DNA of 42,049 bases from Mediterraneibacter catenae (GTDB taxonomy: Bacteria > Bacillota > Clostridia > Lachnospirales > Lachnospiraceae): contig NZ_VMSO01000023.1 in NCBI RefSeq assembly GCF_008691045.1, positions 1 to 42,049 on the forward strand. Direction: 5' to 3'. Below, piece by piece: positions 14,780 to 20,477 of the stretch. A model generated the notes under the pieces. That model was given only the letters and a program-made list of their open reading frames with translations, was not told where the DNA came from and searched no databases. Numbering within the stretch: position 1 is the first letter of the stretch; each line of letters opens with the position of its first letter. The position numbers were made by a program, and so were the translations under genes.

Positions 14780-15168
14780 AAATGAAACGGGAACTAATTA
14801 CTTATCTCATCAGCGGAGGTGTGACCACGGGAGTCAATTATCTCCTGTATGCAGGTTTACTTGCGCTTCACATCCCTTATCTTGCTGCCAACAGCGCGGC
14901 ATGGGCGGGCGCTGTACTCACCGCATACGCCCTGAACCGTCAATGGGTCTTTCACTCAAAGAAACATATCGCCAGTGAACTTGCATCTTTCGCCGCACTG
15001 CGTTTCCTGACTCTGCTTGTGGAAAATATGCTTCTGTGGCTGCTCATCAGCCGGATGGACACGGCTGCATTTCCGGCCAAGCTCATCGTAAGCGTAGTCA
15101 CTGTAGTCGGGAATTATGTATTATGCAAATTTGGAATTTTCAGAAAGGAGGCTGTCACTCATGGATAA
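14776..15168 (+). CDS. GtrA-family membrane protein (lipid-linked sugar flippase candidate)
   Basis: A 130-residue protein with four predicted membrane helices and the GtrA hallmarks: ITYLISGGVTTGVNYLLY at the N-terminus and LNRQWVF after helix two. GtrA-type proteins are thought to flip undecaprenyl-phosphate-linked sugars for a partner GT2 enzyme. ATG 14776 follows AGGGAGG by eight nt and overlaps the yfhO-like stop as ATGA. A TTG at 14770 is possible but poorer. Its 3' end overlaps the glycosyltransferase start by eight bases, indicating translational coupling of all three genes. Confidence 0.85.
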   Translation: MKMKRELITYLISGGVTTGVNYLLYAGLLALHIPYLAANSAAWAGAVLTAYALNRQWVFHSKKHIASELASFAALRFLTLLVENMLLWLLISRMDTAAFPAKLIVSVVTVVGNYVLCKFGIFRKEAVTHG

Positions 15169-16090
15169 GATCAGTATCATAGTGCCATGTTATAACGAAG
15201 AGAAGGCCCTGCCGGAATTTTACCGGGTCACTTCCGATGCGGTAAACGGTATCGAAGGGGCGGTATGTGAATTTATCTTTGTAGACGACGGGAGCAGCGA
15301 TCACACTTCCGATATCCTGGAGAGCTTCGCCTGCGCGGACAGCAGGTGCAGATATATTTCATTCTCCAGGAACTTCGGGAAAGAAGCCGCCATGTATGCC
15401 GGACTCCAGAATGCCTCCGGCGACTACTGTGTCTTCATGGACGCGGATCTGCAGCATCCGCCGCAGCTTTTAAAAGAAATGTATCATGTACTGAAAACAG
15501 AGGGTTACGACTGCTGCGCAGGTTTAAGAGAAGACCGGACCGGAGAAAATAAGCTTCGCAGTATCCTCTCACGTACATTTTATAAGATCATCCGCAAAAC
15601 CTGCAAACTGGATATGGGAGACGGAAAAGGGGATTTCCGCATGATGAACCGGACAATGGCTGATTCCATTCTCGAACTGAAAGAATACAACCGATATATG
15701 AAAGGAATCTTTTCTTTCGTCGGCTTTGACACAAAATGGATTCCCTTCCACAATGTCGAGCGGACTGCCGGTGAGACTAAATGGTCGCTCCCCTCCCTGT
15801 TCCGGTATGCTATAGACGGTATCCTGTCCTTCTCCTCCGCACCCGTGACCATGGCAGGGACAGCCGGCGCCCTCCTGTTCCTTGCCGCGATAGTGACCGG
15901 GATATGGGCTCTGCTATCCGGGAACGGACTGACCGGTATACCTCTGCTCGTCTGCCTGATCCTGCTGCTCAACGGAGTGCAGATGTTCTTCATATCCATT
16001 CTGGGGCAGTACGTATCGAAAGATTATATGGAGAGCAAGAAACGGCCGATCTATATCGTCAAAAAGAAAGGAGGATTTACAAGTACTTAA
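15161..16090 (+). CDS. GT2 glycosyltransferase, CsbB/GtrB/DPM1-like
   Basis: 309 residues. The GT-A catalytic domain (about 1-230) begins KISIIVPCYNEEKALPEF, has the nucleotide-binding VDDGSSD and the metal-binding DADLQHPP (DxD), and the family motif GDFRMMNR. Two C-terminal membrane helices (about 230-290) anchor it to the inner face of the membrane. Its role would be to charge undecaprenyl phosphate with a sugar from a UDP-sugar, for flipping by the GtrA protein and transfer by the YfhO-like protein. The ATG at 15161 follows AAAGGAGG. The sugar cannot be read from sequence; GlcNAc or glucose are the usual ones. Confidence 0.9.
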   Translation: MDKISIIVPCYNEEKALPEFYRVTSDAVNGIEGAVCEFIFVDDGSSDHTSDILESFACADSRCRYISFSRNFGKEAAMYAGLQNASGDYCVFMDADLQHPPQLLKEMYHVLKTEGYDCCAGLREDRTGENKLRSILSRTFYKIIRKTCKLDMGDGKGDFRMMNRTMADSILELKEYNRYMKGIFSFVGFDTKWIPFHNVERTAGETKWSLPSLFRYAIDGILSFSSAPVTMAGTAGALLFLAAIVTGIWALLSGNGLTGIPLLVCLILLLNGVQMFFISILGQYVSKDYMESKKRPIYIVKKKGGFTST

Positions 16091-16115
16091 ATTCCGGATT
16101 TATCGTACAGGCTCA

Positions 16116-16430
16116 TAATTGAAAAACAGCACAAAACAGATTGATACAGCACAGACAATTCACGTATCCACGGACGGAGGAAGATTGATTCCGGCTCCGG
16201 TTACAGAATATAACAGGAACTAGCAAAGCAGGACGAGTGCTAAATACAAATCGATCAAACGGAGAACTCCCAAAGGTCAGACACCTCCGTTTGATCGATT
16301 AACGCAATCGTCCTGCTTTTAAGTTCCTCTAATATTCTTCCAAAGTCGCCGGAATCAATCTTCCTCTGTCCGCGGAATGTGCATCAGATCGGCTGTATCT
16401 GCCTGCTTTTCTGCTCTTTCTCATCCATAA
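16116..16430. repeat. Long imperfect palindrome, about 310 nt
   Basis: Centre near 16275. Pairing blocks from inside out: 16249-16264 with 16285-16300 (16 bp, perfect); 16225-16236 with 16308-16319 (12 bp, perfect); AGGAACT with AGTTCCT; 16171-16195 with 16348-16371 (near-perfect, AGGAAGATTGATTCCGG core); and an outer diverged block pairing GCTGTATC-type sequences around 16116-16150 and 16390-16425. Loop 16265-16284. Each arm also reads in part like coding sequence (right arm, minus: RKIDSGDFGRILEELKSRT; left arm, plus: GRRKIDSG), so an inverted duplication of a decayed gene fragment is one explanation, a structured RNA another. Confidence 0.75.
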
Positions 16431-16491
16431 GCCAGTTCGATAAATCCTCATACAAACCAGAAGAGATGGGAGCCTCATCGTAACGATTGAT
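16384..16491 (-). pseudogene. Possible coding remnant next to the palindrome
   Basis: The minus strand reads INRYDEAPISSGLYEDLSNW and continues WLMDEKEQKSRQIQPI to a stop at 16384; beyond the stop the same frame stays open for more than 40 codons into the palindrome arm. The amino-acid pattern looks like real protein, but there is no start, no ribosome binding site and I do not recognise the family. Confidence 0.3.
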
Positions 16492-16610
16492 AGCTCAACA
16501 TTTATTTGCAGAATCTTTTCTGCTTATCGATAGAAAAGGAATCTTAGTCGAAAAAGATCCGGTTTTGTTCCTTCGTTTGAGATTCGATTTTCGGGATGGG
16601 AAAGAAAGCA

Positions 16611-16741
16611 GCCGGGAGGTATGTATTGTGTACGCACCGTTGGAGCGGCGTCGGCACTTAGAGCGCGTTTTTTGCGCTCTTATGTACCGCTACGCCGCGA
16701 CCGAGTGAAAACGTGTGCGATAACAATACATACCTCCCGGC
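16611..16741. repeat. 131-nt hairpin with perfect 19-bp ends
   Basis: GCCGGGAGGTATGTATTGT (16611-16629) pairs perfectly with 16723-16741. Inside lies a smaller hairpin AGAGCGC-TTTTTT-type loop-GCGCTCT (16660-16680) with further GCGGCG/CGCCGC pairing between. It stands 33 bp beyond the treC stop and could end treC transcription, though there is no terminal T run. The inner sequence resembles intergenic repeats I associate with Lachnospiraceae genomes; that memory is unverified. Confidence 0.75.
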
Positions 16742-16773
16742 GGACTCTTTCTCAGTCAGATAAATCCGGAATT

Positions 16774-18441
16774 TTAGCGATACCATACGGCTGCTTCATA
16801 CGGCTTCAATTTCATCGTACCATCCTCAGCAATCTCTGTCTCTTCATAATTCCCCAGCACTTTTCTGAATCCGTTAAGATCCGGCGCGCCTTTCCACTGA
16901 TATTCTTTTTCGTAGAAATTCGCCGTCACAATCAGCTCATGTCCCTCATAGGTCCTGCGGTACGCAAATACGGACGGATCTTTCTGGGCCAGAGGCTCCA
17001 CATCACCGTAAGCGATAACATCGGACTCTTCGGAGTCTTTTCTGAGGGCGATCAGCTTCTGATAATAGTGGAAGATGGAATCTTCATCTTTCAGCTGGTC
17101 TGCCGCGTTGATCTTTTCGTGATTGCTGTTCACTGCAATCCACGGCTTCTTGCTGTCCTCTGATGTGAAGCCGGCATATTGGGAAGCATCCCACTGCATC
17201 GGTGTACGTCCGTTGTCACGGGAATGGATCTGGATGATACGCAGGGCATCGGAAGCGGACAGTCCTTTATCCTGAAGGATCTGGTAGTGATTGAGGCTTT
17301 CTACATCCTTGAACTGCGAGATGTCCGTAAAGTCTGTATTTGTCATTCCCAGCTCTTCGCCCTGATATACATACGGTGTACCGCGCAGGCAGTGGATGAT
17401 GGTTCCGAGCATCTTGGCTGATTCTTTCCAGTATCTGCCTTCATCGCCGAAACGGGATACGACACGGGGCTGATCATGATTGCACCAGAATACAGCATTC
17501 CATGCATTGTGCTCTGCCATCTTTGTTTGCCACTCAAAAATGATGTCTTTGAGTTTTTGGAAGTCTGCGGGTACAAGCACCCATTTTTCATTTCCCATGA
17601 AATCTACTTTCAGATGATGGAAGCTGAAGACCATGGACAGTTCACCAGTGTCACGGCCCGCGTACTGGTAGCAGTTATCGATCGTTGTACTGGACATCTC
17701 GCCCACAGTCACGAATCCGTCAGCCTGCCCGAATGTCGTATCATGCATCTCTTTCAGATACTGGTGGATCTTCGGACCGTCGGTATAGAATCTGCGGCCG
17801 TCGCCAATATCGTCGTCCTCGTAACAGGCTTTACTGATCAGGTTGATCACGTCAAAGCGGAATCCTTTGACACCTTTCTCCATCCAGAACTTTAAGATCT
17901 TCTGAATCTCTCTTCTGACATTTTCATTTTCCCAGTTCAGATCCGCCTGAGATACGTCGAAGAGATGCAGATAATACTCGTCAAATTTCTCTACATATTC
18001 CCATGCGTTTCCCCCGAACTTGCTCTCCCAGTTGGTCGGAGGTTCGCCGTTGTCCTTTCCTTTGCGGAAGATGAAGAAATCTTTATAATATGAATCCCCC
18101 GCCATAGCTTTCCGGAACCACTCATGTTCTGTTGAAACGTGATTAAACACCATATCGAACATCAGGCCGATTCCCCTCTTATCTGCCTCTGCGATCAGCT
18201 CTTCCACATCTTCCATCGTTCCGTATCCGGGGTCAATGTTATAATAATCCGCCACATCATATCCGTTGTCATTCTGCGGGGATACGAAAAAAGGAGTAAG
18301 CCAGATGTAATCAACGCCGAGTTCTTTTATATAATCAATTTTGCTTATAACGCCGCGCAGATCGCCAAGTCCGTCTTTGTTTGTGTCACAGAATGATTTG
18401 GGATAAATCTGATATACAGTACTTTTTCTGAAATCTTTCAT
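16774..18441 (-). CDS. treC: Trehalose-6-phosphate hydrolase (phosphotrehalase)
   Basis: 555 residues, the usual length for GH13 phospho-alpha-glucosidases of the TreA/TreC type. It cleaves imported trehalose 6-phosphate to glucose and glucose 6-phosphate in the cytosol. Catalytic residues: D197 in GFRFDVINL, E248 in TVGEMS, D323 in NHDQPR; first strand STVYQIYPKSFCDTNKDGLG is diagnostic of oligo-1,6-glucosidase relatives. Start at ATG 18441, after AGGACAGGGG; an upstream in-frame codon at 18486 would overlap treP. It lies 35 nt downstream of treP, so both are on one transcript. The neighbouring trehalose PTS and TreR-type repressor support the substrate. Confidence 0.93.
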   Translation of the reverse strand: MKDFRKSTVYQIYPKSFCDTNKDGLGDLRGVISKIDYIKELGVDYIWLTPFFVSPQNDNGYDVADYYNIDPGYGTMEDVEELIAEADKRGIGLMFDMVFNHVSTEHEWFRKAMAGDSYYKDFFIFRKGKDNGEPPTNWESKFGGNAWEYVEKFDEYYLHLFDVSQADLNWENENVRREIQKILKFWMEKGVKGFRFDVINLISKACYEDDDIGDGRRFYTDGPKIHQYLKEMHDTTFGQADGFVTVGEMSSTTIDNCYQYAGRDTGELSMVFSFHHLKVDFMGNEKWVLVPADFQKLKDIIFEWQTKMAEHNAWNAVFWCNHDQPRVVSRFGDEGRYWKESAKMLGTIIHCLRGTPYVYQGEELGMTNTDFTDISQFKDVESLNHYQILQDKGLSASDALRIIQIHSRDNGRTPMQWDASQYAGFTSEDSKKPWIAVNSNHEKINAADQLKDEDSIFHYYQKLIALRKDSEESDVIAYGDVEPLAQKDPSVFAYRRTYEGHELIVTANFYEKEYQWKGAPDLNGFRKVLGNYEETEIAEDGTMKLKPYEAAVWYR

Positions 18442-18476
18442 AGTTGTACATCCCCTGTCCTTCCTTATTTTAATTA

Positions 18477-20477
18477 TTAATCCCAAGAGATAACAGTTGT
18501 CTCTCCTGCTTTTGCATCCATGCCGGAATGCATCCGGATATTAGCTGCGCTTCCCTCTGCGGTCACGATCAGCATTGTCGTGCACGGATGTCCTGCTGCT
18601 TTGATCTTCTCAGGATCGAACTCGATAAGTTTCTGTCCTGCTTTCACATGGTCGCCCTCATTTACAAGAAGCTTAAATCCGTCTCCGCCCATATCGACTG
18701 TGTCAACGCCGACATGGATCAGAAGTTCCACTCCGTTGGGAAGTGTCAGGCCGCACGCATGGCCTGTATCAGCCATTACAACGCTAACGTCGCAGTCAGC
18801 CGGAGCTGTCACAACTGTATTGGACGGTTCGATTGCAACGCCGTCGCCCATGATCTTCTGTGAGAATACATCGTCCGGAGCCTCCTCGATGGGCATTACC
18901 TTACCGTCAAGGATTGATTTCAGTTCTTTTACATCAGCTGCGTCTGTACTGGAAACTGCTGCAGAGTCTGCGCTGTCTGCTGCCTGTGCTGTTTCAGCGG
19001 ATTCTGTACCTTCTGCTGACTCAATTGCCGGAGCAGCATTTTCTTTGCCGAATCTGTCTTCTTTTGAAAGTTTGATCTTTCCCACGATAAATGTCAGGGT
19101 AAACGGGATCACAATCGCGGCTGCCATAGCCAGGAGGAAAAGTCCCCAGTACTCCGGTTTAATGGACAGGATTCCCGGAAGACCGCCGACGCCGATGCTC
19201 AGCGCCTCTATCCCGAATCCTACGGAGATCATTGCCGCACAGCAGGAACCGATCATACCGCATACAAGCGGGAATACATATTTCAGGTTGACACCGAATA
19301 ATGCAGGCTCTGTAACTCCCAGATAACAGGAAATACATGCCGGGACATTGATCTGCTGCGCGCGCTCGTTTTTCTTCTGGAGCACGCTCATTGCAAGCAC
19401 ACTGGAGCCCTGCGCGATATTGGAAAGGGCGATCATCGGCCAGAGGATCGTGCTCTTTGCCGGAGTGTTGAGTAACTGTGAGTCGATAGCATTTGTCATA
19501 TGGTGCAGGCCGGTCATAACAAGCGGTGCATATAACAGGCCGAATACTGCTGCAAACAGGAATCTGAAGTCAGATGTAAGTCCTGCGTATACTACGTCTC
19601 CGATAGCGTTTCCGATGGTCCAGCCGATCGGTCCCACGATTGTATGAGCGATGATAACCGCCGGAACAAGGGAACAGAAAGGAACTACGATCATACTGAT
19701 CACTTCCGGGCATATCTTCTTAAAGAACTTCTCCAGATATACAAGGACGAAACCTGCCATCATCGCCGCGATGACCTGCCCCTGATAACCGATCATCTCA
19801 ACCTGGAAGAATCCGAAATCCCATACCGGAATCTCATCCGCCGGTGTGGACGATACGCTGAAGCCGTTCAGGAGCTGGGAAGACACAAGCGTCAGTCCAA
19901 GGATGATACCAAGAATCTGAGTCGTTCCCATTTTCTTAGTGATCGACCACACGATACCTACCGGCAGTAAGTGGAATACCGCTTCACCGATCAGCCAGAG
20001 GAAATTGTACATTCCCGACCAGAATTGGGAGACATCTGCAAGACTCTGTGTTCCGTTGTTAAAGAAGTTGATCTCACCGATCACATTTCTGAAGCCGAGC
20101 ACAAGACCTCCGCAGATCAGGGCCGGAATCAGAGGTGCAAATATCTCGCCCAGTGTTCCCATGATCTTCTGAGCAATATTCTGATTCGTCTTCGCCGCTG
20201 CTTTCACGGCATCCTTGCTCACACCCTCGATGCCCGCATATTTCGTAAATTCATTATAAAATACAGACACGTCATTTCCGATGATGACCTGGTACTGTCC
20301 TGCCTGTGTAAATGTCCCCTTTACACTCGGCAGATCCTCGATCGCTTTCTCATCTGCTTTCTTCGGATCGATGAGGACGAATCTCATCCTTGTCATACAG
20401 TGGGAGACAGCCTGGATATTTCCCTTGCCCCCGACGAGTTCAAGCAGACGTTTTACGTCATTATCATACTTTCCCAT
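18477..20477 (-). CDS. treP: Trehalose-specific PTS transporter, EIIBC with fused EIIA
   Basis: 666 residues in the cytoplasmic membrane. EIIB (about 1-85) has the phosphorylated cysteine C27 in AVSHCMTRMRF. EIIC (about 105-465) has ten or so membrane helices and the TGLHH motif. An Ala/Ser/Glu-rich linker (about 475-515) leads to a glucose-type EIIA domain (about 520-666) with active-site H588 in ELLIHVGVDTV. Carrying its own EIIA lets it take phosphate directly from HPr. It imports trehalose as trehalose 6-phosphate for treC. The IIA fusion is common in Firmicutes but absent from E. coli TreB. Transcribed from the TreR-controlled promoter at 20554-20582. Confidence 0.93.
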   Translation of the reverse strand: MGKYDNDVKRLLELVGGKGNIQAVSHCMTRMRFVLIDPKKADEKAIEDLPSVKGTFTQAGQYQVIIGNDVSVFYNEFTKYAGIEGVSKDAVKAAAKTNQNIAQKIMGTLGEIFAPLIPALICGGLVLGFRNVIGEINFFNNGTQSLADVSQFWSGMYNFLWLIGEAVFHLLPVGIVWSITKKMGTTQILGIILGLTLVSSQLLNGFSVSSTPADEIPVWDFGFFQVEMIGYQGQVIAAMMAGFVLVYLEKFFKKICPEVISMIVVPFCSLVPAVIIAHTIVGPIGWTIGNAIGDVVYAGLTSDFRFLFAAVFGLLYAPLVMTGLHHMTNAIDSQLLNTPAKSTILWPMIALSNIAQGSSVLAMSVLQKKNERAQQINVPACISCYLGVTEPALFGVNLKYVFPLVCGMIGSCCAAMISVGFGIEALSIGVGGLPGILSIKPEYWGLFLLAMAAAIVIPFTLTFIVGKIKLSKEDRFGKENAAPAIESAEGTESAETAQAADSADSAAVSSTDAADVKELKSILDGKVMPIEEAPDDVFSQKIMGDGVAIEPSNTVVTAPADCDVSVVMADTGHACGLTLPNGVELLIHVGVDTVDMGGDGFKLLVNEGDHVKAGQKLIEFDPEKIKAAGHPCTTMLIVTAEGSAANIRMHSGMDAKAGETTVISWD

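What the first reader, a model, noticed from the sequence alone, without database searches (positions are those of the whole stretch)
16089..16774. Intergenic tract made almost wholly of nested and neighbouring long inverted repeats
Between two convergent genes lie a perfect 16-bp bounding repeat, a ~310-nt imperfect palindrome with perfect blocks of 12-16 bp, and a 131-nt hairpin with perfect 19-bp ends. This is far beyond a terminator. Arms of the large palindrome partly read as related peptides, suggesting an inverted duplication of a gene fragment; but compensated pairing would point to a large structured RNA or a foldback mobile element.
Basis: seen in the sequence. Interest (0 to 1): 0.75.

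Follow-up and report, generated by a model that had tools for sequence, protein, structure and literature searches.

The report
Folded repeat wedged between stop codons
The gap between two genes that point at each other is filled by one copy of a non-coding repeat, predicted to fold on itself, whose two ends touch both genes' stop codons; dozens of related copies lie in this bacterium and many more in its relatives, and they likely descend from a mobile element that took over the tail ends of genes.

Summary
Window 16089-16774 is one of three near-full-length copies (the others 98% and 95% identical to it) of a dispersed non-coding repeat. It has a perfect 16-bp inverted end motif and two foldable modules, M1 and M2, both with strong compensatory change across species; neither reached an Rfam cut-off.

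The surprise is position. Of 55 outer ends listed in the genome, 47 lie within 4 nt of the stop codon of a gene reading into the element; in 9 of the 14 copies with both ends listed, both do, so the element is the whole spacer. Relatives without it have 24-147 nt there at the one pair compared. Orthologous junctions tend to keep the same stop-to-end distance while the sequence just inside differs. M1 is found in 48 of 58 genomes of the genus, M2 in 73 of 200 of the family.

Best reading: a non-autonomous, mobile-derived, modular repeat, comparable with pneumococcal BOX, that lodged at gene 3' ends and likely replaced native spacers and terminators. No mobilising enzyme, target duplication, canonical terminator or transcript was shown. 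The gene-fragment idea found no support; the foldback and structured-RNA ideas are partly supported.

The parts
16089..16774 (.). whole element, stop codon to stop codon (686 bp)
16089..16104 (+). left end motif AAATTCCGGATTTATC; its first two A complete the stop codon of the left gene
16759..16774 (-). right end motif, inverted copy of the left one
16096..16447 (.). large imperfect palindrome that contains module M1
16185..16360 (+). module M1, full-length match to model R2 (164.2 bits); strand as modelled
16249..16300 (+). M1 terminal hairpin: perfect 16-bp stem, loop AACTCCCAAAGGTCAGACAC
16600..16752 (+). module M2, full-length match to model R1 (185.2 bits); strand as modelled
16611..16741 (.). 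131-nt hairpin, core of M2
15116..16090 (+). left gene (324 aa; glycosyltransferase-like by my recall); stop TAA at 16088-16090 overlaps the left end motif
16774..18486 (-). right gene (570 aa ORF; alpha-glucosidase-like by my recall); stop at 16774-16776 overlaps the right end motif

Best explanation
The tract is one copy of a dispersed non-coding repeat with inverted end motifs and two covarying modules, and its ends coincide with the stop codons of both flanking genes; it is likely a non-autonomous mobile-element descendant that inserted at gene 3' ends, would have displaced the native spacer and terminator, and is predicted to serve now as the folded 3' end of both transcripts. Shown: copies, end motif, stop abutment, a native spacer in some relatives, covariation, and a stop-to-end distance that agrees between species while the inside differs. 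Inferred: the end motif was the site of a trans-acting transposase or recombinase. Because the motif begins AAA, an insertion after the T of any stop codon rebuilds TAA at once, so the stop is the most upstream silent landing point. Later events exchanged or inverted the inside. At convergent pairs the native spacer was lost in a way not seen here, possibly by recombination between elements at the two stops. The structures would then act as barriers in both directions and be kept because the native terminators are gone.
For: Copies at unrelated genes, near-identical. 47 of 55 listed outer ends at -4..+4 nt of a stop, 21 at exactly -2; 9 of 14 copies with both ends listed abut stops on both sides (lists). 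Other species: 35 of 61 gene ends that face an M2 element carry the end motif by the stop. Native state: ABC-F/DegV pair without element in 10 of 29 other loci, gaps 24-147 nt, 603 nt here; 8 own convergent pairs without element have gaps 40-158 nt. Stop-to-motif distance agrees in 202 of 263 orthologous pairs (shuffles 97, 0 of 5000 as high), or 66 of 110 without the largest group (shuffles 33.6, 0 of 5000), while 4 of those 110 agree just inside. Covariation of M2 and M1.
Against: No target-site duplication was seen in the 16 copies printed. No coding frame or autonomous partner was found in the copies looked at. No canonical terminator in the tract: 0 found, 0.9 expected. No intermediate with an element at one stop and native spacer left before the other was recognised. 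G-T pairs are scarce and in M1 fewer (14) than A-C mismatches (35), which does not favour RNA on the modelled strand. Orthologues also tend to keep the same stop codon, and the equal distances could come from repeated targeting.
Confidence: 0.55

Rival explanations
1. Repeated, targeted insertion: an unknown enzyme keeps placing elements at the same gene ends, so equal distances reflect target choice, not inheritance of one old junction.
For: Orthologous ends hold different inner sequence at the same distance; 21 of 55 ends sit at exactly -2.
Against: Locus-specific leftovers of 6 and 7 nt recur in different species at two genes, easier by descent; no enzyme found.
Confidence: 0.2
2. Static host modules: spacers are vertically inherited folded 3' regions, kept alike within a genome by gene conversion; nothing is mobile.
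For: In several near relatives the same gene ends are occupied; structure is conserved.
Against: At ABC-F/DegV 10 of 29 other loci lack the element; copies 95-98% identical stand at unrelated genes; copy numbers differ widely between species.
Confidence: 0.15
3. DNA-level palindromes: the inverted repeats are kept by template switching or as cruciforms, without an RNA function.
For: Few G-T pairs; in M1 14 against 35 A-C; perfect stems of unrelated sequence.
Against: Conserved unpaired loops in M1 and a GAAA tetraloop in M2; in M2 G-T exceed A-C, 90 to 17, or 48 to 17 without one constant G-T pair.
Confidence: 0.15
4. Palindromes of the REP type, moved by a Y1 (RAYT-like) transposase.
For: The genome has one Y1_Tnp match; palindromic repeats by gene ends.
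Against: Y1_Tnp in 36 of 73 genomes with M2 and in 80 of 127 without (p 0.07, the wrong way); the own Y1 gene is flanked by another repeat, GGGGACGTAG.
Confidence: 0.04
5. Inverted duplication of a gene fragment.
For: The arms read as short similar peptides by eye.
Against: 0 Pfam families; pairing is kept through compensatory change.
Confidence: 0.03

Closest known systems
Pneumococcal BOX, RUP and SPRITE repeats (PMC3049150, passages)
   Same: Short non-coding repeats in many copies, foldable; BOX is modular and 67-637 bp; all three are over-represented between convergent genes; in 36 genes a BOX encodes the stop codon.
   Different: BOX and RUP make target duplications, none seen here; here most ends abut stops to within 4 nt and the element often is the whole spacer; letters and modules differ; this group is found across a family rather than a few streptococci.
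Bacterial MITE-like small mobile sequences (review PMC2229807, passages)
   Same: Non-autonomous, terminal inverted repeats, no protein; many ends here also read TA at the junction.
   Different: Those are given as under 200 bp, A+T-rich and with target duplications; here 419-896 bp in the printed complete copies, no duplication seen.
E. coli REP palindromes near stop codons (PMC12306157, passages)
   Same: Palindromes after stop codons; those within 15 nt are said there to stall ribosomes.
   Different: Only 446 of 4,072 REPs are within 15 nt of a stop there; no link to Y1 transposase here.
Clostridiales-1 (RF01699) and TwoAYGGAY (RF01731) candidate RNAs (PMC2864571, table passages)
   Same: Structured candidates from Clostridiales and gut; each lies some 190-200 nt from an M2 copy in one other genus (G169, G094).
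   Different: Neither matches the window's tract. Clostridiales-1 in G169 scores 40.9 bits, below its cut-off 48; TwoAYGGAY in G094 scores 68.7, above 43.

Membership tests
MITE-like repeat (BOX/RUP/ERIC type) | terminal inverted repeats | tested here: met
   Perfect 16 bp, and 52 motif matches in the genome against 0 for the control.
MITE-like repeat (BOX/RUP/ERIC type) | many copies at unrelated sites, no coding frame | tested here: met
   70 matches; arm peptide 0 Pfam families.
MITE-like repeat (BOX/RUP/ERIC type) | target-site duplication | tested here: inconclusive
   None seen by eye in 16 printed copies; no strain-level empty site was available.
MITE-like repeat (BOX/RUP/ERIC type) | transposase with matching ends | tested here: inconclusive
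   No motif pair 1-3 kb apart noticed among 52 matches; only Y1_Tnp was searched as a family.
REP/RAYT system | presence goes with a Y1 transposase | tested here: not met
   36 of 73 with M2, 80 of 127 without.
Rfam families (4227 models) | match at the gathering score | tested here: not met
   Window 15900-17000: only two sub-threshold plant miRNA matches up to E 5.
intrinsic terminator | short hairpin followed by a T run | tested here: not met
   0 found, 0.9 expected in shuffles; the scan takes loops of 3-8 nt only.
structured RNA | compensatory base changes | tested here: met
   M2: 35 of 52 pairs, all five measures above 500 of 500 shuffles. M1: 37 of 40 pairs, four of five measures; pair types reached by 118 of 500 shuffles.
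structured RNA | is transcribed | not testable with these tools

The most novel reading that the evidence does not exclude
A family-wide class of mobile 3' ends: structured cassettes that settle with nucleotide precision on stop codons by a mechanism that senses the end of translation or of the gene, replace the native terminators of dozens of genes per genome, and then swap their contents while the junctions stay fixed.
Probability: 0.2. Interest if true: 0.92.

Novelty: new variant of a known kind. Interest (0 to 1): 0.74.

Why it matters
Spacers between convergent genes are usually read as private terminators. Here many of them are copies of one kind of repeat that starts and stops on stop codons, in a large family of gut bacteria. 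If confirmed, this is a natural system in which the 3' ends of genes are exchangeable parts. It also gives two covarying modules that reached no Rfam cut-off here, ready for tests of function, and a sharp puzzle: how an element comes to sit exactly on a stop codon, and where the native spacer went.

Tried and rejected
Gene-fragment duplication: 0 Pfam families for the arm peptide. Y1 transposase: no positive association. Plasmid or phage carriage: no match in either collection; the exact 16-bp motif in 10 viral stretches was not followed up. Canonical terminator: none. Rfam: nothing at cut-off in the window; neighbours in other genera, and one weak Clostridiales-1 match (24 bits) overlaps an M2 copy on the other strand in L345. 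M2 pairs about 0.75-1 kb apart as ends of an autonomous element: in the three cases read, the long frame between them looks like an ordinary host gene (by eye). Zero-spacer natives as the cause of exact position: possible at miaB-spoIIIAA, but own convergent pairs without element have gaps.

Counts and dropped rows. One search lists 22 rows: 8 gaps of 40-158 nt without motif, 3 overlaps (-37, -11, -4), one 8-nt row between two frames inside an element, one 514-nt gap without motif, and 9 gaps of 207-683 nt with an end motif on at least one side; 135 ends after removal of repeats, out of 643 with repeats, in loci picked for elements or their orthologues, so no genome rate; its shuffles scanned fewer positions than the data. 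One search aligned 46 of the 55 distinct M2 sequences. One search used the 23 of 32 M1 sequences that one search kept. One search used 59 of the 84 rows (same places twice, weak, cut-off and antisense rows left out), 46 of the 55 M2 places (9 left out, mostly the most diverged) and 54 of the 55 rows; the 55 ends were listed by hand; one miss (L103 right) used a coordinate inside the element. Searches used ends with offset -2..+8; one group (HndD) holds 153 of the 263 pairs. Match counts are capped per genome.

Papers. Listings only. Passages: PMC2864571, PMC12306157, PMC3049150, PMC2229807. These searches listed no paper that I recognised as describing this repeat; subscription papers, preprints and supplements were not seen.

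Full report
What is there. The window is contig 16 of a 3.18-Mb genome in 63 contigs. The best named matches of the left gene are Candidatus Mediterraneibacter genomes, 91% and 89% identical, a genus of Lachnospiraceae. It is repeated: BLAST gives 70 matches in the genome, two nearly full length at other genes (98% and 95%), many others mosaics that share the ends and the right part. The end motif occurs 52 times with up to 2 mismatches against 0 for the reversed control. At least 21 of the 126 contig ends of the assembly fall in or within 90 nt of a copy (my count).

Position. Of 55 outer ends that I listed, 47 lie within -4..+4 nt of the stop codon of an open frame of at least 100 codons that reads into the element; 21 are at exactly -2, where the T of the stop is followed by the AA of the motif. 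Of the 14 copies with both ends listed, 9 abut a stop on both sides (L089-L092, L095, L096, L098, L102, L110); the element is then the whole spacer. In the other 5 one end abuts a stop; in L093, L106 and L119 the next long frame reads away, and in L103 the far side is a promoter region. Over all fetched loci, the end motif passes a shuffle threshold at 135 distinct gene ends; it starts at -2..+6 nt from the stop in 129 of them and further out in 6. In 40 M2 loci of other species, 35 of 61 gene ends that face the element carry the motif; the 26 misses are mostly in more diverged copies. The last residues of three flanking genes (VKRTIN, LAE, LTK) are shared with orthologues, so these genes are not cut.

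What was there before. In the own DNA at hand, 8 convergent pairs without an element have gaps of 40-158 nt, while rows with an end motif span 207-683 nt (remaining rows are listed under Tried and rejected). For the ABC-F/DegV pair, 10 of 29 other fetched loci show the same convergent pair without an element, gaps 24-147 nt, several with what looks by eye like a terminator; here the gap is 603 nt, all element. At miaB-spoIIIAA, 17 of 30 loci could be read. Six have the miaB stop directly before a GTCATA box (recalled as the kind of a sigma-E promoter), four have a spacer in between, three (own, L140, L142) carry an element from the stop to a few nt before the box, L144 and L145 hold long inserts with the motif at the far end only, L141 looks like a remnant, and L167 holds another insert.

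Junctions agree, contents do not. In 25 groups of orthologous gene ends (89 ends), 202 of 263 pairs share the distance from stop to motif (97 in shuffles, 0 of 5000 as high), while 5 of 263 agree at 12 or more of the 16 bases at positions 15-30. One gene, HndD, supplies 153 of these pairs; without it 66 of 110 agree (33.6 in shuffles, 0 of 5000) and 4 of 110 agree inside; 16 of 25 groups agree fully. Odd distances recur: 6 nt in three species at one gene, 7 nt in two at another. Stop codons agree too (239 of 263 pairs), which orthologues may do anyway. At the window's own locus G009 has a 308-bp gap, and L010 has the two modules in reverse order. Repeated targeting of the same spot remains possible.

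Two modules. M1 and M2 were aligned across species. M2: 97.9% of cells pair, 35 of 52 pairs change on both sides, all five measures above 500 of 500 shuffles. M1: 91.5%, 37 of 40 pairs, four measures above all shuffles, the fifth (number of pair types) reached by 118 of 500. Slid controls are far lower for both. M1 stems of unrelated letters carry the same loop, AACTC..TCAGACA. M2 has a mostly GAAA loop closed by U-A 29 or C-G 16 times. Against a plain RNA reading, G-T pairs are scarce: in M1 14 against 35 A-C mismatches; in M2 90 to 17, of which 42 are one constant pair. Strand, and whether RNA or DNA is selected, stay open.

Spread and polarity. Model R2 finds M1 in 48 of 58 genomes of the genus, with 22 matches here. 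M2 is found by DNA in 39 of 58 and by model R1 in 73 of 200 genomes of the family, each of another genus. In a draw of 291 genomes of the class 7 match, all in the own family. M1 starts 83-107 nt after a stop, in sense, in 42 of 59 matches used; M2 ends 18-26 nt before an opposite stop in 34 of 46, and 0-49 nt before one in 25 of 54 matches in other genera. In G094 four of four M2 copies fetched lie 29 nt from a stop, behind another end that also begins with A.

How it most likely works. I read it as a non-autonomous, modular, mobile-derived repeat. Its leading AAA makes the stop codon the most upstream silent landing point, since T plus AA restores TAA. That would fit the pile-up at -2, and that ABC-F genes without element mostly end in TAG or TGA (9 of 10) while 7 near relatives with other ends after the stop have TAA; the own gene keeps TGA. 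What removed the native spacer at convergent pairs is not shown. The modules then probably act as 3'-end structures in both directions; no canonical terminator was found and no transcript was seen.

Comparison. Pneumococcal BOX is nearest in kind; REPs close to stops are said to stall ribosomes. No family was met in all features tested. Rfam's Clostridiales-1 and TwoAYGGAY lie beside M2 in two other genera and may be further modules of such elements.

Noticed in passing
L355 (G000 contig 18, Y1_Tnp match at 16828-17154): A single Y1 (RAYT-like) gene flanked on both sides by a GGGGACGTAGTAAA palindromic repeat; the same kind of repeat follows gene stops in relatives (e.g. L177, L211, L222-L225). 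It looks like a separate REP system.
   Followed up: partly
L170, L176, L205, L206, L140, L142 and others: Other element families with the end ATTCGTGTTTGTT also start directly after stops and are large palindromes of two inverted halves; 685 nt shared at 88% between different genes.
   Followed up: partly
L328/L340 (G169) and L326 (G094): Rfam Clostridiales-1 (below cut-off) and TwoAYGGAY (above cut-off) lie about 190-200 nt from M2 copies, so these candidate RNAs may belong to the same kind of element.
   Followed up: partly
L341, L342, L343, L371, L372, L374, L376 and others: In other genera M2 often occurs as two copies pointing outward, in L341 between convergent genes with both stops 0-5 nt away.
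   Followed up: no
L349 (G167 contig 21): Three M2 copies in a direct tandem row about 187 nt apart.
   Followed up: no
L275-L284: The exact 16-bp end motif occurs in ten stretches of viral contigs; chance or real was not tested.
   Followed up: no
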